Part shown: positions 9,844-58,912 of the stretch, one piece after another
How positions within the stretch are numbered: the first letter of the stretch is position 1
How the letters are laid out: each line of letters opens with the position of its first letter
NCBI GenBank assembly: GCA_900316255.1
Contig: ONCI01000012.1
Span: 1 to 60,354 of the forward strand
Source: an uncultured Eubacteriales bacterium
GTDB lineage: Bacteria > Bacillota > Clostridia > Oscillospirales > Oscillospiraceae
Direction of reading: 5' to 3'
DNA: 60,354 bases
Position numbers and translations under genes: made by a program
Notes under the pieces: generated by a model
What the model was told of the DNA's origin: nothing
Database searches by the model: none
What the model saw: only the letters and a program-made list of their open reading frames with translations

Positions 9844-10338
9844 ATGAGAGCAATTTTTGAGCGTGTGAGCATCCGCCGCTATGAAGAGAGACCCGTGGAA
9901 GAAGAGAAGCTGGAAGCGCTGCTGCGCGCTGCCATGGCGGCCCCTTCGGCCGGCAACCAGCAGCCCTGGGAGTTTTATGTGATCCGGGACCGGCAGATGC
10001 TGGAGAAGCTTTCCAAGGTCAGCCCCTATGCCGGCTGCACCGCGAAGGCGCCTGTTGCCATCGTCAGCGCCTACCGGGAAAAGCTCTGGGCGCCGTCCTA
10101 TGCCCAGATCGACATGAGCATTGCCATGGAAAACCTGTGGCTGAGCTGCGGCGAGCAGGGCCTCGGCGGCGTGTGGCTGGGCATCGCCCCGGTGGAGGAG
10201 CGGATGCGGGCCGTGGAGGAGATCGTGGGCATCCCTGAGGGATTGCGGGCCTTTGCCATCTTCCCCCTGGGCTATCCCGCCGAGAGCCGGGCCCAGCAGG
10301 ACAGATGGGATCCGGAGCGGGTGCATCGGATCGGGTGA
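9844..10338 (+). CDS. Nitroreductase-family flavoprotein
   Basis: 164 residues. The N-terminus ERVSIRRYEERPVEEEKLEALLRAAMAAPSAGNQQPW is the nitroreductase FMN-binding signature, and QGLGGVWLGIAP is the second conserved block. Such small FMN oxidoreductases reduce nitro groups, quinones or related acceptors with NAD(P)H; the true substrate is unknown. AAGGAGG precedes ATG 9844. It stands alone, with no operon partner, and ends at a bidirectional terminator. Confidence 0.85.
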   Translation: MRAIFERVSIRRYEERPVEEEKLEALLRAAMAAPSAGNQQPWEFYVIRDRQMLEKLSKVSPYAGCTAKAPVAIVSAYREKLWAPSYAQIDMSIAMENLWLSCGEQGLGGVWLGIAPVEERMRAVEEIVGIPEGLRAFAIFPLGYPAESRAQQDRWDPERVHRIG

Positions 10339-10410
10339 AGGAAATTCGGAGTTCGGAATAGAGGGAAACACGTAGGGAGCGATCTCAATGCTGCTGCGAG
10401 GAGATGTGAG

Positions 10411-10480
10411 GACACCTCATCCGTCATCCGCCTTGCGGGAGACGGCGGATGACACCTTCCCCTCAAGGGGAAGGCTTTGA
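10411..10480. repeat. Dispersed palindromic intergenic repeat (A-type, clear copy)
   Basis: CATCCGCC (10425-10432) faces GGCGGATG (10444-10451), followed by CCTTCCCC (10455-10462) facing GGGGAAGG (10467-10474). It is nearly identical to the copy at 16.88 kb. Confidence 0.75.
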
Positions 10481-10530
10481 GAGCAGCAGATCATCCAACT
10501 CCCCTCAAAACTAGAAACGAAAAACTGCAA

Positions 10531-10577
10531 AAAGCACCGGGCATCGGGAATTTCTTCCCGATGCCCGGTGCTTTTTT
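10531..10577. terminator. Bidirectional terminator between nitroreductase and purine operon
   Basis: A 20-base perfect stem (10531-10550 with 10555-10574) with a TTTC loop, A-rich on the left and T-rich on the right. It can end both the plus-strand nitroreductase transcript and the long minus-strand purine transcript. Confidence 0.85.
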
Positions 10578-10584
10578 GCTTAAC

Positions 10585-11778
10585 TCACTCGGCGGTGTAG
10601 TTGTCGAAATAGCCCTGGATGAAGACGATGGGGGTGCCCTTGTCGCCGGAGCCGGAGGTCAGGTCGCAGAGGGAACCGATCAGGTCCGTCAGGCGGCGGG
10701 GGGTGGTGCCCTCGGAGGCCATCTGACCCACCAGGTCGCCGTCCTTCTTGCGGATCTCCTCCTCGATAGCTTCGCGCAGCGCGTCGCCGGAGAGGGCGGC
10801 AAAGTCGTTATCCGCCAAGTACTTGAGCTTCAGCTCGTTGGGGGTGCCCTCCAGACCCTTGGTGTAGGCTGGGGAGACCACCGGGTCCGCCAGCTCCCAA
10901 ATCTTGCCGATGGGGTCCTTGAAGGCGCCGTCGCCGTAGACCATGACCTCGATGTTCTTGCCGGTCTTTTCCTTCAGTTCCGCCTGGATGGCCTCCACCA
11001 GAGGCTGGCAGTCCCGGGGGAAGAGCTTGACCTTGTCCTCGGTGGCCTTGTTGGAGCCCAGCAGACCGTAGCGCTCGTTGTAGCCGCTGCCGTTGACGGA
11101 GGCGGTCATCAGCTCGTCCAGACCGAAGACCCGCTCGCCGCCGGCGGCCTTCAGGATGCGGGAGGTGCGGGCGCGGGTGTGGATATCGCAGTGGATGACG
11201 TTTTTGGTGTAGTCCAGGATGCGGCGGGCGTCATTGGCAAAGATCACTTCCACCTCGGCACCGGAATCCCGGATCAGCTCAGCATAGTAATCCACGTAGT
11301 CGACGCCGGTGAAGCGGTGGACCCGGTAGCCGAAGAGCTCCCGGTAGCGCTCCAGAGTCAGCAGATCCCGGTAGGGATCCACGCCCTTCTCGTCCAGACT
11401 GTCCCAGTCCACCAGGTGGTTGCCCACCTCGTCGGAGGGATAGGAGAGCATGAGGACCACTTTCTTCGCGCCCTTGGCGATGCCCCGCAGGCAGATGGCA
11501 AAGCGGTTGCGGCTGAGAATGGGGAAGATGACGCCGACGGTCTCGCCGCCCAGCTTTTCCTTCACGTCGGCGGCGATGTCGTCCACCGTGGCGTAGTTGC
11601 CCTGGGCCCGGGCGACGATGGCCTCGGTCATGGCGACGATGTCCCGGTCATGGAAGGCAAAGCCCTCCTGCTCGGCGGCGGCCAGGACGGATGCGGTCAC
11701 GATCTGCTTCAGATCGTCTCCCTCGCGGATGATGGGGGCGCGGACGCCCCGGGAAACAGTTCCTACCATACGACTCAT
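10585..11778 (-). CDS. CofE/FolC2-like (COG1478) gamma-glutamyl ligase family protein
   Basis: 397 residues. The N-terminal part (APIIREGDDLKQIVTASVLA ... DRDIVAMTEAIVARAQG) matches coenzyme F420-0:gamma-glutamyl ligase, but the protein is longer than the roughly 250-residue archaeal CofE. No other F420 gene is visible. COG1478 members have been reported to replace folylpolyglutamate synthase in Chlamydia. Being last in a purine operon with two folate-dependent transformylases makes folate polyglutamylation a plausible inference. Start: ATG 11778 after AAGGCAGG; an upstream in-frame extension reads over purL and is ignored. 70 bases separate it from purL. Confidence 0.75.
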   Translation of the reverse strand: MSRMVGTVSRGVRAPIIREGDDLKQIVTASVLAAAEQEGFAFHDRDIVAMTEAIVARAQGNYATVDDIAADVKEKLGGETVGVIFPILSRNRFAICLRGIAKGAKKVVLMLSYPSDEVGNHLVDWDSLDEKGVDPYRDLLTLERYRELFGYRVHRFTGVDYVDYYAELIRDSGAEVEVIFANDARRILDYTKNVIHCDIHTRARTSRILKAAGGERVFGLDELMTASVNGSGYNERYGLLGSNKATEDKVKLFPRDCQPLVEAIQAELKEKTGKNIEVMVYGDGAFKDPIGKIWELADPVVSPAYTKGLEGTPNELKLKYLADNDFAALSGDALREAIEEEIRKKDGDLVGQMASEGTTPRRLTDLIGSLCDLTSGSGDKGTPIVFIQGYFDNYTAE

Positions 11779-11848
11779 AGATTTTTTACCTGCCTTTCTT
11801 TTGCTGCTTCCGGGATCGGAGCGATCGTTCTCCGGAAGATGGAATCGA

Positions 11849-12388
11849 TCAACGGAAATACCGGACGGCGGCCTCGAACATGCGGAGGTCGTAGTTGCCG
11901 GGGACGTTTTTGTAGAGGTTGGAGCCGATGCGCTCGGCGTGGCCCATCTTGCCGAAGACGCGGCCGTCGGGAGAGGTGATGCCCTCCACGGCGAAGAGGG
12001 AGCCGTTGGGGTTAAAGTGCACATCGGCAGTGGCCCTGCCTTCCAGATCCACATACTGGGTGGCAATCTGCCCATTGGCGGCCAGGGCGCGGATGGTGGC
12101 CTCGTCCGCCAGGAAGCGGCCCTCGCCGTGGGAGATGGGCACGTTGTACACCTCGCCCACCTGGGTCAGCGCCAGCCAGGGGGACTTGTTGGAGGCGATG
12201 CGGGTGCGGACGATGCGGCTCTGGTGCCGGGCGATGGTGTTGAAGGTCAGGGTGGGCGCCTTTTCATCCGGCTCGATGATGCGGCCGTAGGGTACCAGAC
12301 CCAGCTTGATGAGGGCCTGGAAGCCGTTGCAGATGCCGCAGATGAGGCCGTCCCGCTGCTCCAGCAGCTCCATGACCCCTTCCTTCAC
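11849..12388 (-). pseudogene. purL: purL, 3' fragment: glutaminase domain after a frameshift
   Basis: This frame encodes the rest of the FGAM synthase glutaminase domain, including the nucleophile motif GICNGFQALIKLGLVPYG and downstream SHGEGRF (catalytic His/Glu region). Upstream of its first ATG (12388) the same frame still reads family sequence (FSGGDEPDGSGKFITAFFRS) back to about 12470, where it abuts the other frame. It therefore looks like a broken continuation of the upstream purL frame, not an independent PurQ. No ribosome binding site is evident near 12388. Confidence 0.8.
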
Positions 12389-15300
12389 GGGATCGGAGCG
12401 GAAGAAGGCGGTGATGAACTTGCCGGAGCCGTCCGGCTCGTCGCCGCCGGAGAACCCGGAGGCGCCGGGCGAAGTCCTCCACGGAATGGGCGATGGCGTC
12501 GGCGCTCAGGTTGCGGATGACGAAGATCTCCGGCTCGCCGCCGGCATCACGCACAGCGCGGGCGCTGTCGATCTCGCAGTTGGTGCCGGGGAAGGCCGGG
12601 ATCAGCACCCGGGGCTTTGCCACGCGGATGGCCGGAGCCGGACGGCTTTCGGCGGAATAGGAGAAGGTCTCCAGAGGGATCTCGGGCGTGGGGATGTTGC
12701 AGGCGTAAACGCTCTCCAGCTTGCCCTCGTAGAGCTCCAGGAGCTTTGCGCAGTCCAGAGACGCATCACCGCAGGTGAAGCAGCCGTCGTCGGTGAAGAC
12801 GCCCAGGCACTCGCCGGGCACGTCCTCGTCCGCCTCCACCAGGAAGGCACCGTAGTCGTAGCCGAAGAGACGGTCCAGCGGCAGATCTGCCCGGAAGCGG
12901 AAGCCCAGGGCGTTGCCGATGGCCATCTTCCAGATCGCGGCGGCGTCACCCCCCTCGCCGGGAGTGTAGCAGGCGTAGGCCTTGCCGCTGTGCAGAAGAG
13001 CGTTGACGGTATCGAAGAGGGAGAGGAGGGAGGCGGCGGTGGGAAGGCCGCTTTCGTCCTTTTCCGGCGCCAGGCGGATGAGCTTGTGGCCCGCCTGCTT
13101 TGCCTCGGGGGTCACGATATCGCCGGTTTTGGCGGTGGTGACGGCGAAGGAGACCAGGGTGGGGGGCACGTCCAGGTTCTCGAAGCTGCCGCTCATGGAG
13201 TCCTTGCCGCCGATGGCGGCAACGCCCAGGCCCATCTGGGCCTCAAAAGCGCCCAGCAGGGCGGCCAGAGGCTTGCCCCAGCGCTTGGGATCCTTGCCCA
13301 GACGCTCGAAGTACTCCTGGAACGTGAGGTACACGTCCCGGAAAGCGGCGCCGGAGGCAATGAGCTTTGCCACCGATTCCACCACGGCAAGATACGCGCC
13401 GTGATAGGGACTCTGCTCCGAGAGGAAGGGGTTGAAGCCCCAGGACATGAGGGAGCAGTCCTCGGTATGGCCCTGCTCCAGAGAGATCTTCTGCACCATT
13501 GCCTGGACCGGGGTGAGCTGATATTTGCCGCCGAAGGGCATCATCACGCTGCCGGCGCCGATGGTGGAGTCAAAGCGCTCGCTGAGGCCCCGGCGGGAGC
13601 AGCCGTTCAGGTCCGAGACGGCCTTGCCCATGGCCTCGGCAAAGGAGGCGGCGGGCTGAGGCTCCAGAGCCTTGGGGGCGGCGGCATCCACGGTGATGTG
13701 CTTGGCTGCGCCGTTGGTGTCCAGAAAAGCGCGGCTCAGATCCACGATGGTCTTGCCGTTCCAGTGCATCCGGAGGCGAGGCTCCGGCGTGACCACGGCC
13801 ACGGGCACGGCCTGCAGGTTCTCCTGATCCGCCAGGGCCAGGAAGGCGTCCCGGTCCTCGGGGGCGATGACCACGGCCATGCGCTCCTGACTCTCGCTGA
13901 TGGCAAGCTCGGTGCCGTCCAGACCCTCATACTTGCGGGGGACGGCGTTGAGGTCGATGCTGAGACCGTCGGCCAGCTCGCCGATGGCCACGGAGACGCC
14001 GCCTGCGCCGAAATCGTTGCAGCGCTTGATCATACGGGTGGCGGAGGGGTTGCGGAAGAGGCGCTGGAGCTTGCGCTCCTCGGGGGCGTTGCCCTTCTGC
14101 ACTTCGGCGCCGCAGGTCTCCACCGAGTGGGCGTCATGGGCCTTGGAGGAGCCGGTGGCGCCGCCGATGCCGTCCCGTCCGGTGCTGCCGCCCAGGAGGA
14201 TCACCAGATCCCCGGGAGCGGGCCGCTCCCGCCGCACATTGGCGGCCGGGGCCGCGGCGATGACCGCGCCGATCTCCATGCGCTTGGCAGCGTAGCCCGG
14301 GTGATACCACTCGTCCACGATGCCTGTGGCAAGGCCGATCTGGTTGCCGTAGGAGGAATAGCCTGCGGCGGCGGTGGTGACCAGCTTCCGCTGGGGAAGT
14401 TTGCCGGGGATGGTCTCGCTGACGGGCTTCAGGGGGTCCGCCGCGCCGGTGAGGCGCATGGCCCCGTAGACGTAGGCCCGACCGGAGAGAGGGTCCCGGA
14501 TGGCGCCGCCGATGCAGGTGGCCGCGCCGCCGAAGGGCTCGATCTCGGTGGGGTGGTTGTGGGTCTCGTTCTTGAAAAGAAGCAGCCAGGGCTCGGTCAC
14601 GCCGTCCACGGTGACCTCGGTCTTCACGGTGCAGGCGTTGATCTCCTCGCTCTCGTCCAGCTTCGGGAGCTTGCCGGCCTTCTTCAGGGCCTTGGCGGCG
14701 ATGGTGCCCAGGTCCATCAGGCAGATGGGCTTGGTGCGGCCCAGGGCCTCACGGGTGGCCAGATAGTCCTCCCAGGCCTGCTGCAGCAGGGGATCGGAGA
14801 AGCGGGCCTCGTCGATGACAGTGTTGAAGGTGGTGTGACGGCAGTGGTCGGACCAGTAGGTGTCCAGCACCCGGACCTCGGTGATGCTGGGGTCCCGGCC
14901 CTCGGTGCGGAAATAGTCCTGGCAGAAGGCAAAGTCGTCCCCGTCCATGGCAAGACCGAGACGGCGGCCCAACGCTTCCAGCTCCTCCCGGGGCAGCTCC
15001 CGGAAGCCCTCCAGGGTCTCCACGCTCTCGGGGAGCACATACTGCATGGCCAGAGTCTCCGGCCTTCCCAGGGCGGCCTCCCGGGCCTCCACAGGGTTGA
15101 TAACGTATTTCTTGATCTCCTCCAGCTCCTCCGACGTCAGGTCGCCGTAGAGGGCGTAGACCTTGGCGGAGCGGACCAGGGGCCGCTCTCCCCGGGAGAG
15201 GATCTGGATGCATTGTGCGGCAGAGTCCGCCCGCTGGTCAAACTGGCCGGGGAGATACTCCACGGCGAAGACCAGGGCGTCGCCCGGGTCGATGCTCTCG

Positions 15301-49512: not shown

Positions 49513-50693
49513 GCTTCGGCCTCCTCCAGCAGAATGCCGCCCTCGGGACGGATGGACAAAACCTGGCAGCTGCCTTCGCCCAGCACGGCCTCCATGCCGC
49601 TGCGGAAGGCGTCCAGCAGATCCAGGGGAACAAAGGCCTGGATGGTGCCGGCAAAGCCGCCGCCGTGGACCCTGCAGGCGCCTCTGCCCTGCAGGAGACG
49701 GGCGGCCAGGGCCAGACTCAGGGCCAGCTCCTGGTGCCGGGTGCTGCCGGTGGGGACCACGTTTTGCAGGTAGAGCCAGGAGGAGCGGCCGGACTCGTTC
49801 ACCAGGTCCAGGAAGCGGGGAAAGTCTTTTGCCTTCAGGGCTTCCACCTGGAGCGCAACCCGGCGGTTGTCCTCAAAAAAGTGCATGGCGCGCAGGGCGG
49901 CCCGATCGCCTGCCGCGGCGCGGACCTCCCGGAGACGGGCGTAGAAGGCGTCCTCGTCCACCTCGCGCAGATGCTCCTTGCCGAAGACGGCGCAGACGGC
50001 CTTCATTTCCCGGGGAATGGCGGCGTACTCATCCGTGAGATCCGCGTGGTCTGCGCCGGAATTGACGATACAGAGGGCGTGGCCGCAGGAAGCAAAGTCA
50101 AAGTCCAGCGGCTCCACCACGGGACGGGAAGCATCCGCAAAGTCGATGGTGACGATGCCGCCCACGGAGGAGGCCATCTGGTCCATCAGGCCGCAGGGCT
50201 TGCCGAAGAAGACGTTTTCGGCATACTGGCCGATCTGGGCGATCTCGATGGCGGAGAGACCGCAAGTGTCCAGGCTGTTGATGATCGTACCCAGCAGGAC
50301 CTCAAAGGCGGCGGAGGAGGAGAGCCCGCTGCCGGGCAGGACCCGGGAAGTCACATAGGCGTCAAAGCCGTGGACCCTATGGCCCAACTGGGTGATCCGG
50401 GCGGCTACGCCGCGAATGAGGCTCAGGGTGCTGCCAAATTCTTGGGGGCGGATCTCCAGCTCGTCCAGAGACACGGTGCAGAGGGGGTAGCCCTCCGACT
50501 GGATGCGGATCAGACGCTCCCCGTTGGGGGCAACGGCAGCCAGGGTGTCCACGCTGACGGCGCCGGCCAGCACCCGACCCAGCTGATGATCCGTGTGGTT
50601 GCCGCCCAGCTCCGTGCGGCCGGGGGCGGAGAAGAGAAAGCGCGCGGGGCGGCCAAAGCAGGCCGCAAAGCTTTGCTTGATCGATTCGTACAT
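49509..50693 (-). CDS. galK: Galactokinase
   Basis: 394 residues, GHMP kinase. SAPGRTELGGNHTDHQLGRVLA is the galactokinase signature, ATP motif LPGSGLSSSAAFEVLLG, and C-terminal GGGFAGTIQAFVP. It phosphorylates galactose at C1 for GalT. CGGAGG lies upstream of ATG 50693. Divergent from the RiPP-like operon. Confidence 0.94.
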   Translation of the reverse strand: MYESIKQSFAACFGRPARFLFSAPGRTELGGNHTDHQLGRVLAGAVSVDTLAAVAPNGERLIRIQSEGYPLCTVSLDELEIRPQEFGSTLSLIRGVAARITQLGHRVHGFDAYVTSRVLPGSGLSSSAAFEVLLGTIINSLDTCGLSAIEIAQIGQYAENVFFGKPCGLMDQMASSVGGIVTIDFADASRPVVEPLDFDFASCGHALCIVNSGADHADLTDEYAAIPREMKAVCAVFGKEHLREVDEDAFYARLREVRAAAGDRAALRAMHFFEDNRRVALQVEALKAKDFPRFLDLVNESGRSSWLYLQNVVPTGSTRHQELALSLALAARLLQGRGACRVHGGGFAGTIQAFVPLDLLDAFRSGMEAVLGEGSCQVLSIRPEGGILLEEAEA

Positions 50694-50804
50694 AATTCAG
50701 TCCTCCGAGACACATAAAAATCCATATTGAAAATAACACAAACTATTCGGACGGTCAACGGGAAAACGAGACTTTGCATCCGGCGCTCCCGGGCAGGGCA
50801 GCGA

Positions 50805-50833
50805 TTGACGAAAGGAAAAACCTTTGCTATAAT
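50805..50833 (+). promoter_or_regulatory. Sigma-A promoter of the RiPP-like operon, with a palindromic spacer
   Basis: TTGACG (50805-50810), 17-base spacer, perfect TATAAT (50828-50833). The spacer contains AAAGG/CCTTT arms (50811-50825), a possible operator. Confidence 0.8.
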
Positions 50834-50917
50834 CTACAGGATATTACGGGGTCTTGCGGGATCACACAGCCGTGGGCTTGCACAACTCGCAGAGAAACAG
50901 AGACCCGGAGGAATGGA

Positions 50918-51670
50918 ATGGCGGAAAACATGACGGAATTCACGGTAAAGCTGGCGGATATCCCGGTGAGGATCCGGTCGATCTGGCCGGAGCTGCGGCA
51001 GTTTCTGGAGGATTACCTGACGGAAGAGGAAGCGGCGTTCACCCTTGAGACCCGGCAGGAGGATATCGAGCAGGAGCGGATCATGAGCGCCAGGACCCGG
51101 GCCGCTGAGGGCCTGCCGGCGCTGCGCAGCAGCGACGCCTACCTGGAGACCCTTGCCATCTACCGCAAGCTGGCCGAGGAACTGGTGGAGCGGGACGTGC
51201 TGCTGTTTCACGGTTCCGTGGTGGCGGTGGACGGCCAGGCCTATCTCTTTGCGGCCCGGAGCGGCACCGGCAAGAGCACCCACACCAGACTCTGGCGGGA
51301 GGTTTTCGGAGAGCGCGCCGTGATGATCAACGACGACAAGCCGCTGCTGCGTGTGAGCGGGGAGGGCGTGCGCGCGTACGGTACCCCCTGGAACGGCAAG
51401 CACCATCTGGGAGGCAACATCTCGGCGCCGCTGAAGGCGCTGTGCATTCTGGAACGGGACAAGGAAAACCATGTGGAGCGCGTGTCTCCCGAGGAAGCCT
51501 TCCCTCGGATGCTGCAGCAGTGCTATCTGTCGGAGGATGGAGAGAAAGCGGCAAAGACCCTGGCGCTGCTGGAACGCATGTGCCAATGTGTAAGGCTTTA
51601 CAGACTGGGCTGCAATATGGAACGGGAAGCGGCGCTGGTCTCATATCAGGGAATGCAGGAGGAAGCATAA
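50918..51670 (+). CDS. HPr-kinase/PEPCK-like P-loop protein of a RiPP-like cassette
   Basis: 250 residues. A helical N-terminal part (about 1-90) is followed by a P-loop domain: LLFHGSVVAVDGQAYLF, Walker A ARSGTGKST (113-121), INDDKPLL with acidic pair Asp139-Asp140, and YGTPWNGKHH. This pattern fits HPr-kinase-like proteins found beside PqqD domains (ScmC; lasso-peptide tailoring kinases). A role in phosphorylating a peptide is inference. ATG 50918 follows GGAGG by 6 bases. It is first in an operon with PqqD, peptidase and exporter genes. Confidence 0.8.
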   Translation: MAENMTEFTVKLADIPVRIRSIWPELRQFLEDYLTEEEAAFTLETRQEDIEQERIMSARTRAAEGLPALRSSDAYLETLAIYRKLAEELVERDVLLFHGSVVAVDGQAYLFAARSGTGKSTHTRLWREVFGERAVMINDDKPLLRVSGEGVRAYGTPWNGKHHLGGNISAPLKALCILERDKENHVERVSPEEAFPRMLQQCYLSEDGEKAAKTLALLERMCQCVRLYRLGCNMEREAALVSYQGMQEEA

Positions 51671-51671
51671 G

Positions 51672-51935
51672 ATGAAACTGAAACAAGGCTTTATCACCCA
51701 CAACGTGGGAAAGACCCAGATGATGGTGGCCACGGGCCCCGCCAGCTCGGTCTTTCGCGGATTGGTCCGCTCCAACGAGACGGCGGCCTTTATTGTTGAC
51801 TGCCTGAAGAAGGAGACCACGGAGCAGGAGATCGTGGAGGCCATGCTGCAGGAATATGACGCCCCGGCGGAGGTGATCGCCCGGGACGTGCACAGTGTGG
51901 TGGAAAAGCTTCAGGAGATCGGAGCTCTGGAATGA
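51672..51935 (+). CDS. PqqD-like protein (RiPP recognition element)
   Basis: 87 residues, the size of stand-alone PqqD proteins. VLKQ-like strand start MKLKQGFITHNVGKTQMMVATG, VRSNETAAFIVDCLKKETTEQEIVEAMLQEY and DVHSVVEKLQEIGAL match the winged-helix PqqD fold that binds leader peptides of ribosomally made, modified peptides. GGAGGAA precedes ATG 51672, 1 base after the kinase gene. Its stop overlaps the next start (ATGA). Confidence 0.88.
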   Translation: MKLKQGFITHNVGKTQMMVATGPASSVFRGLVRSNETAAFIVDCLKKETTEQEIVEAMLQEYDAPAEVIARDVHSVVEKLQEIGALE

Positions 51936-52375
51936 GCTCCTTCGAGGAAGAACTGGAGCAGAACGGAACGCTGGTCTTTCCCAACAAGGGAACCAGCATG
52001 ATGCCCCTGCTGCGGCAGAACCGGGACCTGATGGTGATCGAAAAGCGGGGCCCGGAGCGCCTGCGGAAATACGACGCCGTGCTCTACAAGCGGGGCGAGA
52101 AGTATGTGATGCACCGGATCCTGAAGGTCCGGGATCGGGATTACTGGATCGTGGGCGACCATTGCCGCGTGGGAGAATCCGTGAGAGATGAGCAGATCCT
52201 GGGCGTGCTCAAGCAGGTGGTGCGGGACGGAAGGACCATCCGGACCACGGATCCGGGCTATCGGCTCTATGTGCATCTGTGGTGCGACTTCTTTCCGCTG
52301 CGCTGTGCCCTTCTTTACGGAAAAGAAGCTGCCCGCGCTGTGGGGCGCAGGATCAAGAGGTGCCTGAAACGATGA
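51932..52375 (+). CDS. S24/S26 signal-peptidase-like serine protease
   Basis: 147 residues. NKGTSMMPLLRQNRD holds the predicted nucleophile Ser22; KYVMHRILKV supplies His61, as in the Ser-His type of SipW/Sec11 signal peptidases instead of Ser-Lys LepB. WIVGDHCRVGESV follows. There is no strong N-terminal membrane helix, but a hydrophobic patch lies near the C-terminus (LYVHLWCDFFPLRCALLYG). In this operon it could cut a leader from an exported peptide, since the ABC exporter has no peptidase domain. It overlaps genes on both sides by 4 bases. Confidence 0.85.
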   Translation: MSSFEEELEQNGTLVFPNKGTSMMPLLRQNRDLMVIEKRGPERLRKYDAVLYKRGEKYVMHRILKVRDRDYWIVGDHCRVGESVRDEQILGVLKQVVRDGRTIRTTDPGYRLYVHLWCDFFPLRCALLYGKEAARAVGRRIKRCLKR

Positions 52376-54060
52376 GAGAGCGAAATTCCACTCTGCGCTG
52401 GTTGAGCGCCATCTCAGGACCGGACAGGATCTGGGTGGCGGCGCTGGCTTTGGTGCAGGCCGCTCTTGGCGGCACAAGCGTGCTCTATGCCTTTCTGCTG
52501 CGAAGCCTCATCGACGAGGCGGTGGCCGGGAACCGGGACGGCCTGATCCGCAGCGCGCTGCTGCTGATCGCTTTGATGCTGGGACAGCTGCTGCTGCGGG
52601 CTGCGAATCGCTTCCTGAAGGAATACAGCGCGGCAGATCTGGAAAACCGCCTGAAGGAACGCCTCTTCTCCCAGCTGCTGCGGAAGGATTATGCGGCGGT
52701 CACGGCGCTGCACTCCGGCGAGTGGATGAACCGGCTGACCAATGACACCGCGGTGGTGGCCAAATCCGCCACCGTCATTGTGCCCCATCTGGCCGGCCTG
52801 CTGGTGCGGCTTGTGGGCGCCGTGTGGGCGCTGGTGTATCTGGAGCCCCGCTTTGCGATGGTGCTGATCCCGGGCGGCGTGGTGGTGATGCTGCTGACCT
52901 ACGCCTTCCGGCGGATTCTGAAGGTCTTGCACAAGCGCATCCAGGAGGCGGACGGCCGCCTGCGGACTTTCCTGCAGGAGCGGCTGAGCAGCCAGCTGGT
53001 GCTGCGCAGCTTCGGCGTGGAAAAGCAGAGCGAGAAGCTGGCCCGGGAGCGGATGAAGGAGCATCTGGACGCCAGGCTTCGGCGAAATCACATCTCCAAC
53101 GTCTGCAATCTGGGCTATGGCCTGATGATCCAGGGCGCCACGGTGGGCAGCGCGATCTACTGCGCCGTGCACCTGATGGGCGGGACCCTCAGCTACGGTA
53201 CGCTGATGGCGGTGCTGCAGCTGGTGGGCCAGATCCAGACTCCCTTTACCAACATCTCCGGCATCGTGCCGGAATTCTACGGCATGATGGCCAGTGCCGA
53301 GCGCCTGCGGGAGGCGGAGAGCTTCCCGGAGGACGGGGGAGAGCCCAGAGAAGAGCGGCAGATCCAGCGCTTCTACGAGGAGGAGCTGATCTCCCTCGGC
53401 CTGGAGAATGCCAGCTTTACCTATCAGCCTCCGGTGCGGGAGGCGGAAGAGCAGCCCATGCCCGTGGTGCTGGACGGCCTCTCCCTGCAGATCCGCAAGG
53501 GGGAATTTGCGGCTTTCACCGGCCATTCCGGCAGCGGCAAGAGCACGGTGCTGAAGCTGTTGATGAGCATCTATCCCCTGGACAGCGGGGAACGCTACCT
53601 GGAGACGGCTCAGGGCAGACAGCAGCTGGACGCCGGCTGGCGGGGACTCTTTGCCTATGTGCCCCAGGGAAACGCCCTGATCAGCGGCAGCATCCGGGAG
53701 ATCATCGCCTTCGGGGACCGGGAGAAAATGCGCCGGGAGGATGAACTGTGGACTGCGCTGCGCATCGCCTGCGCGGAGGATTTCGTTGCCTCCCTGGACA
53801 AGGGACTGGACAGCGAGCTGGGCGAGAGCGGTGCGGGCCTTTCCGAAGGGCAGATGCAGCGCATTGCCATTGCCCGGGCGGTGTTTTCAGGCCGACCGAT
53901 TTTGCTTTTGGATGAGGCCACCAGCTCCCTGGATGGGGAGACGGAAAAGCAGGTGCTGGAAAACCTTCGGAGCATGACGGACCGGACCGTGCTGATCGTG
54001 ACCCACAGGCCCGCGGCCCTGGCCATCTGCGACAAGCAGATCCGGCTGGCGGGAGAATAA
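52372..54060 (+). CDS. ABC transporter, fused membrane and ATPase domains (exporter)
   Basis: 562 residues. The first ~310 form an exporter-type six-helix domain (RIWVAALALVQAALGGTSVLYAFLL; PHLAGLLVRLVGAVWALVYL); the rest is an ATPase with Walker A GHSGSGKS (about 384-391), signature LSEGQ (about 490-494, LSGGQ variant) and Walker B LLLDEA (about 511-516). No C39 peptidase domain is present. Probably exports the product of the cassette. ATG overlaps the peptidase stop by 4 bases. Confidence 0.9.
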   Translation: MRERNSTLRWLSAISGPDRIWVAALALVQAALGGTSVLYAFLLRSLIDEAVAGNRDGLIRSALLLIALMLGQLLLRAANRFLKEYSAADLENRLKERLFSQLLRKDYAAVTALHSGEWMNRLTNDTAVVAKSATVIVPHLAGLLVRLVGAVWALVYLEPRFAMVLIPGGVVVMLLTYAFRRILKVLHKRIQEADGRLRTFLQERLSSQLVLRSFGVEKQSEKLARERMKEHLDARLRRNHISNVCNLGYGLMIQGATVGSAIYCAVHLMGGTLSYGTLMAVLQLVGQIQTPFTNISGIVPEFYGMMASAERLREAESFPEDGGEPREERQIQRFYEEELISLGLENASFTYQPPVREAEEQPMPVVLDGLSLQIRKGEFAAFTGHSGSGKSTVLKLLMSIYPLDSGERYLETAQGRQQLDAGWRGLFAYVPQGNALISGSIREIIAFGDREKMRREDELWTALRIACAEDFVASLDKGLDSELGESGAGLSEGQMQRIAIARAVFSGRPILLLDEATSSLDGETEKQVLENLRSMTDRTVLIVTHRPAALAICDKQIRLAGE

Positions 54061-54068
54061 ACGGACAT

Positions 54069-54109
54069 AAAACCGGGTCCCACCGTGAAGTGGTGGGACC
54101 CGGTTTTTG
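54069..54109. terminator. Bidirectional terminator between exporter and glnA genes
   Basis: A 16-base perfect stem (54069-54084 with 54092-54107) with flanking A and T tracts. Confidence 0.85.
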
Positions 54110-54126
54110 CGCGTGGGGATACGTTT

Positions 54127-55551
54127 TCAGAGATTATAGTATTTTTCAAATTCGGCGGGGTGGGGGATCTGGGAGAGCTCCAGGCACTCCTCCCGTTTGC
54201 GCTTGATAAAGCCCTGCAGCAGCTCCTCCGGAAAGACACTGCCTGCGGTGAGATAGTCGTGATCCCGCTCCAGCGCGTCCAGCGCCTGGTCCAGAGAGGT
54301 GGGCAGGTGATGGAGCTTGGCTTTCTCCGCCTCGGAGAGCTGGAAAAGGTTCATGTCATAGGGACCCCAGCCCCGCTCATGGGGATCGATCTGCCTTTGG
54401 ATGCCGTCGAGACCTGCCATGAGGATGGCGGCATAGCAGAGGTAGGGGTTGCAGGTGGCGTCGGGGTTGCGCAGCTCGAAGCGGCGGAGCCTGGGGCTCT
54501 TGGCATAGGCCGGGATGCGGATGACGGCGCTGCGGTTGGAGGTGGCGTAGCCCACGGTGACCGGCGCCTCAAAGCCCGGGACCAGACGCTTGAAGGAGTT
54601 GGTGGAGGGATTGGTGATGGCGCAGAGAGAGGCGATATGCTCCAGCAGGCCGCCCATGAACCAGTGGGCCTCGCGGCTCAGGTGGGAATAGCCGGCGTCG
54701 TCGGAGAAGACGGGCTCCCCGTCCTTCAGCAGCAGCATGTGCACATGCATGCCGCTGCCGGCCTCGCCGTAGACGGGCTTTGGCATCAGGGTGGCGCTGT
54801 AGCCGTATTTGCGGGCCACGTTGTGGATGATGTACTTGACGAACATGGTGCCGTCCGCCATCTTGGACATCTGCATGAGCAGCGGCTCGATCTCAAACTG
54901 ACCCGCGCCGCCCACCTCCGGATGGTGGTACTTCACGGGGATGCCTGCCTTTTCCATCTCCAGGCACATCTCGCTGCGGCACTCGTAGCTCCGGTCAAGG
55001 GGCTTGGCGATGTGGTAGTTCTTCTGGAAGGGGACCACATTGCCGCTGCCCTCCACGTCGCTGTTCCAGTGGGCCTGGGCGGTGTCCAGGTGCATCTCGA
55101 TCCGGTTGGGCGCTACCTTCCAGCCTACCTGATCGAAGAGATAGAATTCAAACTCCGGCAGGATCAGCATGGTATCGGCGATGCCGGTATCCTTCATGTG
55201 CTGCTCGGCGGCGAGAACGATGTTGCGGGGGTACTGCTTCAGCGGGCGGTTTTTGGGATAGTCAATGATCATGGCGTTGCCGATCATGGAGAGGGTCTTC
55301 ACGCCGCAGAAGGGATCGATCTGTGCGCTGTCCGGATCCGGGATGTAGACCATATCGCTCTTCTCCACCACGGCATAGCCGTAGTTGGAGGCGTCGAAGC
55401 CGATGCCGTTTTCCATGGTCTCCTCATTGAAATGGACGGCGGGAATGGTGACGTGGCGGAACTGTCCGTCGATATCCACCACTTTGAAATCCACCATCTG
55501 AATGTCCTGCTCGCGGATCATCTGCATGATGTCATGCGCGGTCTTTGCCAT
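54127..55551 (-). CDS. glnA: Glutamine synthetase, type I
   Basis: 474 residues. It makes glutamine from glutamate, ammonia and ATP. Motifs are VDFKVVDIDGQFRHVT, LPEFEFYLF (metal site), GGAGQFEIEP, GSGMHVHMLL, NPSTNSFKRLVPG and RRFELRNPDATCNPYL. The segment matching the adenylylation loop reads NLFQLSEAEK, with Phe where the modified Tyr would be, so adenylylation is unlikely, as usual for Firmicutes. ATG 55551 begins the homology after a GTGAGG-type site; upstream in-frame codons are rejected as leader sequence. Confidence 0.93.
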   Translation of the reverse strand: MAKTAHDIMQMIREQDIQMVDFKVVDIDGQFRHVTIPAVHFNEETMENGIGFDASNYGYAVVEKSDMVYIPDPDSAQIDPFCGVKTLSMIGNAMIIDYPKNRPLKQYPRNIVLAAEQHMKDTGIADTMLILPEFEFYLFDQVGWKVAPNRIEMHLDTAQAHWNSDVEGSGNVVPFQKNYHIAKPLDRSYECRSEMCLEMEKAGIPVKYHHPEVGGAGQFEIEPLLMQMSKMADGTMFVKYIIHNVARKYGYSATLMPKPVYGEAGSGMHVHMLLLKDGEPVFSDDAGYSHLSREAHWFMGGLLEHIASLCAITNPSTNSFKRLVPGFEAPVTVGYATSNRSAVIRIPAYAKSPRLRRFELRNPDATCNPYLCYAAILMAGLDGIQRQIDPHERGWGPYDMNLFQLSEAEKAKLHHLPTSLDQALDALERDHDYLTAGSVFPEELLQGFIKRKREECLELSQIPHPAEFEKYYNL

Positions 55552-55752: not shown

Positions 55753-57306
55753 TTATGGGCGCCTGCCGGGGCCGCCTCCCTGGCCGCCGGGACCACCGCC
55801 GGGGCCGCCGCCGTGACCGCCAGGGAAACCACCCATACCGTGGCCGCCCATGCCCATGCCGCCGCCGTAGATCAGGGCATCCAGCGTAAGGGTCTGGGTG
55901 AAGCTGCCGGCGGTGACGGTATAGCTCTCGCCCGCCTCCAGACCGGGACAGCTGATCACCACGCTCTGGTAGCTTTTCTCCGGACGGAAGCTCGCAAGGA
56001 CCGTTCCTCTTTCGTCCGCGATGCTGACAGCATTACCGGCGGCCTGATTGCCCACCGGGAGCAGGATGCTGCCCTGGGTGGAGGAGGGGCCGAAGTTCTC
56101 CGCCATGTCGGCGGAGCCCACGGCGATGAGGATGCCGCCGGTGATGACGCCCTCGGTTCCGTAGTCCAGGGCGCCGTTGCCGCCCCGGGTGGGACCGCTG
56201 ACATAGATCTCACCCCCGTTGACGGAGAGAAGCCCGTTGCTGTCCAGTCCGTCCCCCTCGGCGTTCACGGTGAGGCTGCCGCCGCTGACGGTCAGGCTGG
56301 CGCTGCTGTCGCCCCGGACGTCGCTGCCGCCGGCGGCGTTGAGCCCGTCGTCAGAGGCGAGGATCGAGAGCGTACCGCCGCGGATCTCAATGACCCGGGC
56401 CTCCAGCCCCTCGTAGCTTTGCGCCACGTTAAGGTTGCCGCCGCTGACGGTCAGGCTTTCATCGGCATGGACGCCGTCGTCTCCGCTGGAGAGGAGGAGC
56501 GTCCCGCCCTCCACCGTGACAGATCCGGAGCAGTGGACGGCGTCATCGCGGGAGTGGACGCTGACGCTGCCGCCGGAGATGAGGATGGACCCCGCCGTAT
56601 CGTCCTTGCCGGAGACCAGACCCTTGGTGCCGGCCTCCACCGAGAGGCTGCCGCCCTCTACGGTCAGGCTGTCCTTGCCCTCCAGGCCCTTTTTGGCGGC
56701 AGCGACGTTCACCGTGCCGTCCTTGAGCTTCAGATCGTCCTTACTGACGATGCCGTGACCCGTCTCACAGGAGAGGCTGAGGATGCCCTCGCCGTTCAGG
56801 GTGAGATCGCAGCAGGCGAAGACGGCGGCGTCCACGTTTTTGTCGTCCACCTGGACGAAGTCTCCCGCGGAAGCAAGCAGGTTCACGCTGCCGGAGACGG
56901 TGGAGAGGATGAGCTTGTCCGCGGAGCGGGCATAGAGCGCGGCATGGCCCTGCCGGGTGACGGAGACGCCGTTGAGCAGGAGCTTCACTTTGGCGTCCTC
57001 CGGGGCGTCAATGAGGATCTGCCCGTCGCTCAGCGTGCCGGAGAGCAGATAGGTCCCGGCTTCGCGGATGGTGACGGAGCCGCTCTTATCGGAGAGCGTG
57101 AGGGGGATGGCGTCCTCCGCTGCACCGCTGCCGCTTTGGACGGCGGCGCTGAGATCCGGGGGCGCCGGGACCGAGGAGGCAGGGAGAGAGACTCCCGCCC
57201 CGGAGGGCGCGGGAGTCTCCGCAGAGGGCTTGCCGCCGCAGGCAGAGAGAAGGCCCGCAAGCAGAGTAACAGACAGGATGACAGCAAGAGCGCGTGTTCT
57301 TTTCAT
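55753..57306 (-). CDS. Cthe_2159-like carbohydrate-binding lipoprotein
   Basis: 517 residues. Lipoprotein signal (ILSVTLLAGLLSAC, lipid Cys about 23), low-complexity Pro/Ser linker, then repeated beta-strand rungs (GGTLLLSSGDDGVHADESLTVSGG and similar) typical of the Cthe_2159/DUF4353 right-handed beta-helix, a family reported to bind cellulose or pectin-like polymers. The C-terminus is a striking Gly/Met/His tail (GGGMGMGGHGMGGFPGGHGG and on). It follows the polyP-polymerase and DUF4956 genes, with which such proteins often cluster along with CotH; no CotH is seen here. Confidence 0.83.
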   Translation of the reverse strand: MKRTRALAVILSVTLLAGLLSACGGKPSAETPAPSGAGVSLPASSVPAPPDLSAAVQSGSGAAEDAIPLTLSDKSGSVTIREAGTYLLSGTLSDGQILIDAPEDAKVKLLLNGVSVTRQGHAALYARSADKLILSTVSGSVNLLASAGDFVQVDDKNVDAAVFACCDLTLNGEGILSLSCETGHGIVSKDDLKLKDGTVNVAAAKKGLEGKDSLTVEGGSLSVEAGTKGLVSGKDDTAGSILISGGSVSVHSRDDAVHCSGSVTVEGGTLLLSSGDDGVHADESLTVSGGNLNVAQSYEGLEARVIEIRGGTLSILASDDGLNAAGGSDVRGDSSASLTVSGGSLTVNAEGDGLDSNGLLSVNGGEIYVSGPTRGGNGALDYGTEGVITGGILIAVGSADMAENFGPSSTQGSILLPVGNQAAGNAVSIADERGTVLASFRPEKSYQSVVISCPGLEAGESYTVTAGSFTQTLTLDALIYGGGMGMGGHGMGGFPGGHGGGPGGGPGGQGGGPGRRP

Positions 57307-57331
57307 AGCTTACCTCGTTGAAAACAGAAAA

Positions 57332-57366
57332 ACGGAGGGAGGGACAGGGAAGCCCGATCCCTCCGT
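57332..57366 (-). terminator. Hairpin terminator between DUF4956 and lipoprotein genes
   Basis: ACGGAGGGA (57332-57340) pairs with TCCCTCCGT (57358-57366); on the minus strand it is followed by TTTTTCTGTTTTC. It may reduce read-through into the lipoprotein gene. Confidence 0.7.
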
Positions 57367-57410
57367 ATGAACACCGGAGGCTTCCCGGGAGAGGAAGCGA
57401 ATATCGCCGC

Positions 57411-58109
57411 TCAGAGCTCCGCCGGGTCCTCGGTCTGCAGGGAGAGGGAGATCTCCAGGTTGCCGTTGCGGCAGCGAAGCTCGTCGATCAGATCCTTTTC
57501 CGTGCCGGGCTCCTTCAGCTCGATCTCGTAGCTCAGGCGGTTCAGACTGCCCAGATTTGCGGTCTTGACCCGCAGGAGCCGGGCGCGGGTGGTATAGCGG
57601 GCGAAGAGATCGTCAAAGATCTCCGCGTATTCCAGGCTCTCCGGCACGGTGATGTGCAGGAGACGGAGCCGCTCGCCGCCCCTGGCGCCGCCGAAGCCGA
57701 TGACGGAATAGAAAGCGTCCGCCGCGCAGAGGATCAGGGTGAAGAGAACGGCCAGCGCGGGGCTTCCCATGCCGCAGGCAAGGCCCGCGGCCATGGAGGT
57801 GAACACCGCCGCGATCTCCTTGCCGCTGCCGGGGGCGGAGCGGAAGCGGACCAGGGAAAAGGCCCCCGCCACGGCGATGCCGGCGCCGATGCTGCCGTTG
57901 ACCATCAGGATCACCACGGCCACCACCGGGGGAAGGGTGGCCAGGGTCACGGCGAAGCTGGAGGTGCAGCGGTTGAAGCGGCGATAGACCAGGGCGTGGA
58001 TGGCGCCAAGGACCAGGGCCACTGCCACAATGAGCAGGAAAGCGGAGACCGTCACGGTCTCACCGCTATTATAAAGGGTGGAAAAAACAGAATCAAGCAC
58101 AGAAAACAC
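57411..58109 (-). CDS. DUF4956 membrane protein
   Basis: 232 residues. Three or four hydrophobic helices in the first ~140 residues (VTVSAFLLIVAVALVLGAIHAL; LPPVVAVVILMVNGSIGAGIAVAGAFSLVRFRSAPGS) and a soluble C-terminal domain. GAFSLVRFRSAPGSGKEIA is the conserved signature of the DUF4956 family, often encoded beside VTC-type polyphosphate polymerases. Function is unknown. GTG 58109 has AAAGGA close upstream and overlaps the previous gene by 17 bases. Confidence 0.88.
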   Translation of the reverse strand: MFSVLDSVFSTLYNSGETVTVSAFLLIVAVALVLGAIHALVYRRFNRCTSSFAVTLATLPPVVAVVILMVNGSIGAGIAVAGAFSLVRFRSAPGSGKEIAAVFTSMAAGLACGMGSPALAVLFTLILCAADAFYSVIGFGGARGGERLRLLHITVPESLEYAEIFDDLFARYTTRARLLRVKTANLGSLNRLSYEIELKEPGTEKDLIDELRCRNGNLEISLSLQTEDPAEL

Positions 58110-58803
58110 CGTTCCTTTCTGATGAAATCGTTTTATAGGCTTCGCCGTATTTGGAGAAGGAGGCCTGCCTTACCTGGGCTTTGTCCAGGGCTTCCACCAG
58201 CCAGAGGGGGATGGCCTGGGCAGTCTTGACCTCGAAGAGCGACTGACCGGGGAGCAGCAGCGTCTGCCCGCCGATGGGTGCGCTGAGACGCAGATCCTCG
58301 CTGCGCCAGCGGATGTTCTTGTCGAAGGTGGCGCGAAAGTCCGGATCGTCGGAGGCATACCAGGGGCTGCGGTCATAGCAGAGGTACACCGCGGGCTGCA
58401 GGTCCCGGTAGAAGACACGGCAGTAGTCCAGCTCCCGGCCGATCTGACTGGGCTGGGGCAGGGGCGCCCTGCCCGCCATGAAGGCGGCGGCGTCCCGCTG
58501 GGGGAGAAGGATGCGGCGCTTGTAGACCACGCCGGCGTATTTCTTCTTCAGCTCCAGGAACACGGGATCCTCCTCCCGGGCCCGGCCGTAGCTGCGCATG
58601 CGCAGCTTTTCTTTATAGACGGGCTTTTCCAGCGAGGCCCGGATCAGCCGGTAATCCGGCGTGTCGTAATAGATGTTGCAGACGGTGCTCTCCCCGTGGG
58701 GGTCCATCACCATGCGGCCCCGGAATGCCTGCTCCAGGAATGCGCGCTGGCGGCTGTCCACCAGGAACTTGATCTCCCGCCGCTGAAAAATATCGTTTGC
58801 CAT
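58093..58803 (-). CDS. VTC-domain polyphosphate polymerase
   Basis: 236 residues, tunnel-fold VTC family. RREIKFLVDSRQRAFLE, NIYYDTPDYRLIRASLEKPVYKEKLRMRSYG, FLELKKKYAGVVYKRRI and a C-terminal LFEVKTAQAIPLWL supply the basic and acidic residues that line the tunnel. Relatives polymerise phosphate from ATP. Start ATG 58803 is supported by AAAGGAGG 7 bases upstream. First gene of a three-gene minus-strand group; whether the product is free polyphosphate or something else is not known. Confidence 0.87.
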   Translation of the reverse strand: MANDIFQRREIKFLVDSRQRAFLEQAFRGRMVMDPHGESTVCNIYYDTPDYRLIRASLEKPVYKEKLRMRSYGRAREEDPVFLELKKKYAGVVYKRRILLPQRDAAAFMAGRAPLPQPSQIGRELDYCRVFYRDLQPAVYLCYDRSPWYASDDPDFRATFDKNIRWRSEDLRLSAPIGGQTLLLPGQSLFEVKTAQAIPLWLVEALDKAQVRQASFSKYGEAYKTISSERNGVFCA

Positions 58804-58912
58804 GAGGGGGCCTCCTTTCTTCGTTGTGGCCTCATCATAGAACACGAAACTTAGAAGAAGCTTAAGGAAAGAAAAATCTTTTTCAACCGTAGACGGAACT
58901 GGAAAGAAACGG

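What the first reader, a model, noticed from the sequence alone, without database searches (positions are those of the whole stretch)
50918..54060. Four-gene kinase / PqqD / S26-type peptidase / ABC exporter cassette: candidate undescribed RiPP system
Four overlapping or adjacent genes combine an HPr-kinase-like P-loop protein, a leader-binding PqqD domain, a Ser-His signal-peptidase-like protease and an exporter with no peptidase domain. That is the logic of a modified-peptide pathway (recognise, modify, cut, export). It lacks the asparagine-synthetase-like cyclase of lasso peptides, any radical SAM enzyme and any LanM. I found no precursor gene inside it or in the ~220 bases before it. The kinase could be the sole tailoring enzyme, making a phosphorylated peptide, or the precursor may lie elsewhere.
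Basis: partly seen in the sequence, partly recalled or inferred. Interest (0 to 1): 0.78.

Follow-up and report, generated by a model that had tools for sequence, protein, structure and literature searches.

The report
Phosphopeptide maturation cassette with remote precursors
Four neighbouring genes look like a gut-bacterial version of a recently described pathway that recognises, phosphorylates, trims and exports short peptides, and here the peptides seem to be encoded elsewhere in the genome, mostly beside large secreted proteins.

Summary
Window 50918-54060 holds four tightly coupled plus-strand genes: an HprK/PEPCK-fold kinase, a PqqD-type leader-binding protein (RRE), a Ser-His signal-peptidase-like protease and an MsbA-like exporter. 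No precursor gene was found beside them.

The system is no longer undescribed. In May 2026 Popov et al. (PMC13381572) reported the same set in Bacilli as "linear polyphosphorylated peptide" (LPP) clusters. The residues that hold the leader (N33, D70) and the protease triad spacing (S29/H68/D93) are matched here. The adjacent NTP transferase and the exact Bacillus leader motif are not, so I call it a divergent LPP-type variant.

What I could add: many related cassettes adjoin a short peptide (Y-x-x-P-x-M-E-V-I-x-F-x-x-E-D-V-I-T-T-S plus a variable tail). Its profile finds three such genes in the window's own genome, and a fourth weak one, all on other contigs. Three directly follow secreted proteins, two of these above 2,000 residues. 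The genome has one such protease. Tails with cysteine mostly go with a radical SAM enzyme. The tail also resembles, locus by locus, the C-terminus of a neighbouring membrane-tethered protein.

Action in trans, phosphorylation and any surface role are inferred.

The parts
50805..50833 (+). promoter-like site TTGACG-17-TATAAT (11 of 12), about 85 nt before the kinase
   Evidence: 2 sites found in 50690-54200, mean 0.7 in shuffles; consensus match only
50918..51670 (+). LppK-like HprK/PEPCK-fold kinase (250 aa): Walker A SGTGKST, NDDKP, His98
   Evidence: AlphaFold model and Foldseek; H98, G116, G118, K119, D140 in 101 of 101 aligned relatives
51672..51935 (+). LppB-like PqqD/RRE leader-binding protein (87 aa); N35 and D72 correspond to LppB N33 and D70
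   Evidence: PF05402 E 1.1e-15; PDB relatives TbiB1, TfuB1, 9x90, 9x8z; N35 in 76 of 76, D72 in 65 of 76 relatives
51932..52375 (+). LppS-like Ser-His(-Asp) signal-peptidase-like leader protease (147 aa): S22, H61, D86
   Evidence: weak, E 6.8e-5; S22 in 67 of 68, H61 in 68 of 68, D86 in 48 of 68 relatives; same spacing as LppS S29/H68/D93; only match of its profile in the genome at E <= 0.01
52372..54060 (+). LppD-like MsbA-type ABC exporter (562 aa), no peptidase domain
   Evidence: ABC_membrane, ABC_tran; MsbA models E 2e-67 to 3e-67, below their cut-offs
54069..54107 (+). strong hairpin whose 3' arm ends in a T run, probable terminator between the cassette and the converging glnA
   Evidence: region 54058-54120 folds at -36.6 kcal/mol, z -5.1; not reported by the simple terminator scan

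Best explanation
The cassette is the maturation and export unit of an LPP-type RiPP pathway. The PqqD protein (RRE) binds the leader Y-x-x-P-x-M of short precursor peptides. The HprK-like kinase phosphorylates the near-invariant Ser that lies 19 residues after that Tyr. The signal-peptidase-like protease removes the leader close to that Ser. The MsbA-like exporter secretes the product. In this genome the precursors are not beside the cassette: three, probably four, lie on other contigs, three of them directly after secreted proteins with a shared C-terminal domain, so the cassette most likely works in trans on them. Shown here: the genes, the leader family, its presence elsewhere in this genome, and the linkage statistics. 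Inferred: trans action, phosphorylation site, cleavage site and export.
For: Gene set as in LPP clusters; leader-binding and catalytic residues conserved; kinase fold. Short peptides with this leader in 32 of 102 related kinase loci by clustering (34 genes), 44 of 102 by profile. The profile finds own-genome peptides at E 1.1e-7, 3.9e-7 and 2.8e-4, and a fourth at a non-significant E 6.5 that carries the motif by eye. In 200 family genomes, 17 of the 21 with a peptide (E <= 1e-3) also have the kinase (27 genomes at E <= 1e-30, Fisher 2e-14; 39 genomes at E <= 1e-5, Fisher 1e-10). A single LppS-like protease in the genome. Tyr-to-Ser distance 19 in 56 of 65 parsed peptides, of 69, against 18 in the published LPP motif.
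Against: The leader differs from the published motif (YxxPxVLxHQxIxFETxxS), so homology to LppA is not shown. No NTP transferase beside the window cassette. Kinase and peptide do not always coincide: 10 of 27 kinase genomes show no peptide and 4 of 21 peptide genomes no such kinase. The genome tests ignore relatedness. LppB itself is a weak profile match (E 0.006), and the Foldseek TM-scores of the kinase are modest. The genome also has a second kinase/PqqD/ABC locus (C79) that could handle some peptides, although the protease profile finds nothing there. No expression or mass data.
Confidence: 0.72

Rival explanations
1. The cassette acts on the giant secreted proteins or their membrane-tethered partners, and the short peptides are accessory.
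For: Peptides lie directly after proteins with a shared C-terminal domain: 20 of 33 peptides in the family genomes, 35 of 69 in the fetched loci, or 21 of 49 outside the loci used to build the domain profile. The tethered partner often ends in a tail like that of the peptide.
Against: By eye the giants have signal-sequence-like N-termini and no Y-x-x-P leader (not tested by profile). Popov et al. show the kinase and protease of the same set acting on a short leader peptide.
Confidence: 0.1
2. A decayed lasso-peptide cluster that lost the cyclase and the B2 protease.
For: RRE, HprK-like kinase, NTP transferase and ABC exporter are all known from lasso clusters (PMC8498205 and PMC7533575, passages only). 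The genome has an Asn_synthase-domain gene on contig C84.
Against: The set recurs in many loci, and in the clustering used no other family lies within 6 kb of the kinase in more than 3 loci apart from the NTP transferase, the peptide and the radical SAM protein. No Transglut_core3 (B2) hit over cut-off in the genome, only a weak one on C79 (E 5e-4). The Asn_synthase hits over cut-off are on C84 and C92, not on the contigs of the cassette or the peptides, and 11 of 14 control genomes also have such hits. The protease is of another kind.
Confidence: 0.06
3. An orphan cassette that serves precursors of a different, undetected kind, while the dispersed peptides are matured by the C79 locus or only by radical SAM enzymes.
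For: The C79 locus has its own kinase-like, PqqD-like, NTP transferase-like and ABC genes. One own peptide (C67) sits beside a radical SAM gene.
Against: The LppS-like protease is found only in the window; in related genomes this peptide family sits directly beside this kind of cassette.
Confidence: 0.12

Closest known systems
Linear polyphosphorylated peptides (LPP), lppAKBSDN of Paenibacillus alginolyticus (Popov et al. 2026, PMC13381572)
   Same: Kinase, discrete RRE, signal-peptidase-like protease and MsbA-like exporter; no cyclase in the cluster; leader with YxxP and a conserved Ser 18-19 residues on; RRE Asn and Asp residues and protease Ser/His/Asp spacing.
   Different: Leader M-E-V-I-x-F-x-x-E-D-V-I-T-T-S rather than V-L-x-H-Q-x-I-x-F-E-T-x-x-S (Pro to Phe 7 rather than 10 residues); precursors on other contigs; next to large secreted proteins and, in many loci, a tethered protein with a similar tail; a radical SAM branch; no NTP transferase beside the window cassette.
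Paeninodin-type phosphorylated lasso peptides and pseudomycoidin (as reviewed in PMC8498205, passages seen)
   Same: HprK-like kinase, nucleotidyltransferase in related loci, discrete RRE, ABC exporter.
   Different: No macrolactam synthetase or B2 Cys protease in the cluster; Ser-His protease instead.
SPASM radical SAM RiPP maturases (NCBIfam TIGR04463, PapB, Clo7bot, CefB models)
   Same: Radical SAM proteins beside Cys-containing relatives of these peptides score to these models.
   Different: The three tested lie below the cut-off of every family listed (best 25 shown per protein); none lies in the cassette.

Membership tests
LPP | HprK-like kinase | tested here: met
   PEPCK/HprK fold by Foldseek; sub-threshold NCBIfam hits
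LPP | discrete RRE with the Asn and Asp that fix Pro and Tyr of YxxP | tested here: met
   N35 and D72 align with LppB N33 and D70
LPP | SipW/archaeal-type signal-peptidase-like protease with Ser, His, Asp | tested here: met
   S22/H61/D86, spacings 39 and 25 as in S29/H68/D93; D86 kept in 48 of 68 relatives only
LPP | MsbA-like exporter | tested here: met
LPP | NTP transferase in the cluster | tested here: not met
   absent beside the window cassette; two members of the same protein cluster on contig C79 (L034) and members in 45 of 102 loci (one, from L038, is PF14907). Popov et al. saw no effect of its deletion in B. subtilis
LPP | precursor with YxxPxVLxHQxIxFETxxS leader | tested here: not met
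   the leader found is YxxPxMEVIxFxxEDVITTS; YxxP (in most) and the Ser are shared
LPP | polyphosphorylated linear product | not testable with these tools
   needs expression and mass spectrometry
Lasso peptide | B2 transglutaminase-like leader protease | tested here: not met
   PF13471: no hit over cut-off in the genome, one weak hit on C79 (E 5e-4)
Lasso peptide | asparagine-synthetase-like macrolactam cyclase in the cluster | tested here: not met
   PF00733 hits over cut-off only on contigs C84 and C92, none on the window's contig C37 or the peptide contigs C96, C52, C67, C45; their role was not examined

The most novel reading that the evidence does not exclude
The cassette makes the soluble part of a cell-surface assembly system. 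The exported phosphopeptide carries a tail (E-L-P-F-V-P type) like that of a membrane-tethered protein encoded next to it. Both tails dock into the C-terminal domain of the giant secreted protein encoded just upstream, a domain for which Foldseek finds no significant match among solved structures, so that the tether anchors the giant and the peptide caps or releases it. One central cassette would thereby control several giants scattered over the genome.
Probability: 0.2. Interest if true: 0.85.

Novelty: new variant of a known kind. Interest (0 to 1): 0.62.

Why it matters
LPPs were described months ago in Bacilli and their role is unknown. If this reading is right, the pathway also runs in gut and rumen Clostridia with a leader that the published motif scan (Px9Fx[T/A], within 5 kb of the cluster) would miss, and with one maturation cassette serving dispersed precursors. 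Their frequent position beside large secreted proteins gives a concrete handle on function, at the cell surface. The leader is also shared by a Cys-rich, radical-SAM branch, so one recognition and cutting module may feed two chemistries.

Tried and rejected
Pattern searches of the own genome for the peptide gave nothing usable. ([IV] codons ending in G left out by mistake) had no match. (Y-x-x-P-x-x-E type) had 17 matches; one search read only the 12 on the plus strand of their loci, none a peptide of this kind, and the other 5 were not read. The profile found the peptides. An upstream ORF (50727-50933, TTG start) was rejected as a precursor: no family hit and not picked by codon usage. NCBIfam gave no hit for the three short peptides tried. 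The phylum-wide search found the leader at E <= 1e-4 in 3 of 398 genomes, own genome included, so at that stringency it is not widespread outside the family. Foldseek of the giant C-terminal domain gave no match at E <= 0.001 (best 0.18); weak small-heat-shock-protein hits in that list were not used.

Limits of counts. The C-terminal motif pattern was chosen after seeing the sequences, so its enrichment (13 of 20 partners, 6 of 1334 other proteins; 2 of those 6 are tethered proteins directly before a kinase) is descriptive. One search also parsed some tails wrongly; one search corrects this and is the one to use. The dropped domain rows are on contigs without a typed peptide or are further domains far from it. 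In one search three tails were not parsed; on reading, all 18 peptides near a radical SAM gene have Cys after the leader, and 5 rather than 4 of the other 51 do. A further peptide (L189), missed by the ORF caller and so not counted, has Cys without a radical SAM gene in its locus. The 35 of 42 domain proteins followed by a peptide is biased, since loci were picked around kinases and peptides and the profile A6 was built from such proteins.

Literature: absence from print of this leader, the trans arrangement and the tail likeness rests (open-access PMC only, for four motif strings, found 0 papers; one search was swamped by an unrelated term). Supplements of PMC13381572 could not be read, so Clostridial members may be listed there; its main text has no occurrence of Clostridia, Ruminococc, Lachnospir or radical SAM.
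Full report
Observation. galK/galT lie before them on the other strand and a glutamine synthetase gene converges from behind (Pfam for galK and glnA; galT is a recalled reading of the ORF). A near-consensus promoter-like site lies about 85 nt before the kinase and a strong hairpin lies after the exporter, so the cassette looks like its own operon.

Parts. The PqqD protein matches PF05402 (E 1.1e-15). As a family profile it finds lasso RREs TbiB1 (E 5e-6) and TfuB1 (E 7e-5), and more weakly the RREs of the paeninodin-like (9x90, E 7e-4) and LPP (9x8z, E 0.006) systems (a designed repeat protein also scores 0.002). The kinase has no Pfam hit, and its family profile finds no related PDB sequence, but its model (pLDDT 95.3, pTM 0.90) matches PEPCK and HprK/P structures (E 1e-6 to 1e-4, TM on the query about 0.3-0.5). 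The protease has Ser and His at 22 and 61 and an Asp at 86; S and H are kept in 67 and 68 of 68 relatives, D86 in 48. The exporter has no peptidase domain.

Relatives. The kinase is found at E <= 1e-5 in 39 of 200 genomes of the family, own genome included. In these 80 plus 22 further loci, 102 in all (two of the 22 are the own-genome C53 and C79 loci), the number of loci that hold each protein cluster is: kinase 102, PqqD 76, protease 70, exporter 52, nucleotidyltransferase-like 45, short peptide 32, radical SAM 13. One nucleotidyltransferase was tested and is PF14907 (E 5.6e-39), one radical SAM protein was tested in Pfam and matches Radical_SAM. With a profile instead of clustering the peptide is in 44 of 102 loci. 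In that clustering no other family lies within 6 kb of the kinase in more than 3 loci; the giants and tethered proteins described below are too diverse to cluster. L035 and L079 appear to be the same contig, so the loci are not all independent.

The peptide. The 34 clustered peptides (median 36 aa) share a leader, consensus MKExYxxPEMEVIEFExEDVITTS, and a variable tail. A profile of 31 of them was run on the window's own genome: three hits, on contigs C96 (E 1.1e-7), C52 (3.9e-7) and C67 (2.8e-4), and a fourth on C45 at a non-significant E 6.5 that carries the motif by eye. None is on the window's contig C37. The C96 and C52 peptides follow secreted-looking proteins of 2747 and 2243 aa; the C67 peptide follows one of 475 aa and is followed by a radical SAM gene; the C45 peptide has no such neighbour. 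A same-genus genome (G174) has four peptides on four contigs and its strong kinase hit on a fifth; three of the four adjoin giants of 1608-1901 aa and the fourth lies in a peptide-radical SAM-PqqD-protease cluster.

Co-occurrence. In the 200 family genomes, 21 have a peptide at E <= 1e-3 and 27 a kinase at E <= 1e-30; 17 have both (Fisher 2e-14; with the 39 kinase genomes at E <= 1e-5, 17 of 21 again, Fisher 1e-10). Ten kinase genomes have no peptide and four peptide genomes no such kinase. Relatedness of the genomes is not corrected for. The own genome has one LppS-like protease and two PF05402 hits, on C37 and C79.

Comparison with the literature, done after the above was in hand. Popov et al., Nat Commun 2026 (PMC13381572; abstract and sections 6, 7, 8, 11, 12 and 16 read, plus passages), define LPP clusters by a signal-peptidase-like protease, discrete RRE, HprK-like kinase, NTP transferase and MsbA-like exporter. 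They show kinase-dependent phosphorylation of core Ser3, leader cleavage by LppS with LppB, and the structure of LppB with its leader. LppB N33 and D70 correspond to N35 and D72 here (numbering from the alignment, an offset of 18 in chain 9x8z that I inferred from the residues named in the paper), kept in 76 and 65 of 76 relatives. The conserved Ser lies 18 residues after the Tyr in their motif and 19 in 56 of 65 parsed peptides here. I therefore predict that this Ser is the phosphorylation site. The exact cut is less clear: theirs lies three residues before the Ser, and the residues there differ here. HprK-like kinases and nucleotidyltransferases as tailoring enzymes of lasso peptides are seen in passages of PMC8498205 and PMC7533575. 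The single-protease, co-occurrence, residue, upstream-domain and tail analyses were run after this paper was found.

What seems new. (a) The leader class, and precursors far from the cassette. Popov et al. scanned for Px9Fx[T/A] within 5 kb of clusters; here Pro and Phe are 7 apart. (b) The neighbourhood. A C-terminal domain (about 125 aa) of the protein just upstream is shared: 20 of 33 family-genome peptides have it within 300 nt upstream, 13 do not; 3 of 4 such proteins in the own genome are followed by a peptide. The reverse is weak elsewhere: some genomes have 14-20 matches to this domain and one peptide or none at E <= 1e-3. Its model (pLDDT 87) has no match in the PDB library at E <= 0.001. 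(c) Two classes. Of 69 distinct peptides, those near a radical SAM gene have Cys in the tail in 16 of 18 as parsed, others in 4 of 51 (Fisher 3e-10; 18 of 18 and 5 of 51 on reading, and one uncounted Cys peptide, L189, also lacks a radical SAM gene). The three radical SAM proteins tested match SPASM peptide-maturase models far below cut-off. (d) Tail sharing. In 20 loci the peptide is followed by a small protein of 122-294 aa with a hydrophobic N-terminus; its last 15 residues resemble the peptide's tail more within a locus than between loci (permutation p 5.6e-4 for 20 pairs, 3.6e-4 for the 18 without Cys, 1.4e-4 for 15 after thinning relatives). The idea came from the same data. Examples: GELPFVPAE with IELPFVPAF; PPEGKQVDPFAG with SPEGELLDPFE; EENMTDKG with DNMTEKG. 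Several pairs show no likeness (for example L076, L190, L191, L195). In the own genome, C52 has GELPVDPDGG beside EDELPIVTP.

Judgement. The cassette works like an LPP maturation unit, with good confidence. Strict membership is not claimed, because the adjacent NTP transferase and the published leader motif were tested and not met. That it acts in trans on the dispersed peptides is the most economical reading but is inferred. The surface-assembly reading is a hypothesis that rests on gene position and tail likeness only.

Noticed in passing
L034 (own genome contig C79:106000-125000), 3212-14768: A second, different kinase-like / PqqD-like / nucleotidyltransferase-like / ABC locus (one PF05402 hit plus a second PqqD-like ORF by eye, two nucleotidyltransferase-like genes) next to a 1491-aa secreted repeat protein and, downstream, genes that look like polysaccharide chain-length and phosphatase genes (recalled names).
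   Followed up: partly
L033 (own genome contig C53:1-18000), 2353-8736: A giant secreted protein akin by eye to that of C79, followed by an acidic 89-aa ORF and two kinase-like genes in a row; for the first kinase the similarity starts well before the ORF that was called.
   Followed up: partly
L186 9781-16512 (minus strand), own contig C52: The N-terminal region of the 2243-aa giant contains GVELPFEKV, like the tails of some peptides (NELPFEKV in L076); the only match among 313 proteins above 450 aa with the pattern used.
   Followed up: partly
L187 10222-11553, own contig C67: Radical SAM/SPASM-like gene after a Cys-containing peptide of the same leader family; best models TIGR04463 and CefB, far below cut-off.
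   Followed up: partly
window 55753-58845: A secreted-looking protein gene, a small membrane protein gene and a gene that looks like a VTC-type polyphosphate polymerase domain lie together on the minus strand (names recalled, not tested).
   Followed up: no
L105 (Faecalibacterium prausnitzii contig), 9962-12807: Kinase, radical SAM gene and two Cys-containing peptides of the same leader family in a named gut species.
   Followed up: no
own genome contig C84:27895-28736 (L216-L218): Asn_synthase (PF00733) matches in adjacent pieces that change frame; may be an ordinary asparagine synthetase gene with a frame change.
   Followed up: no
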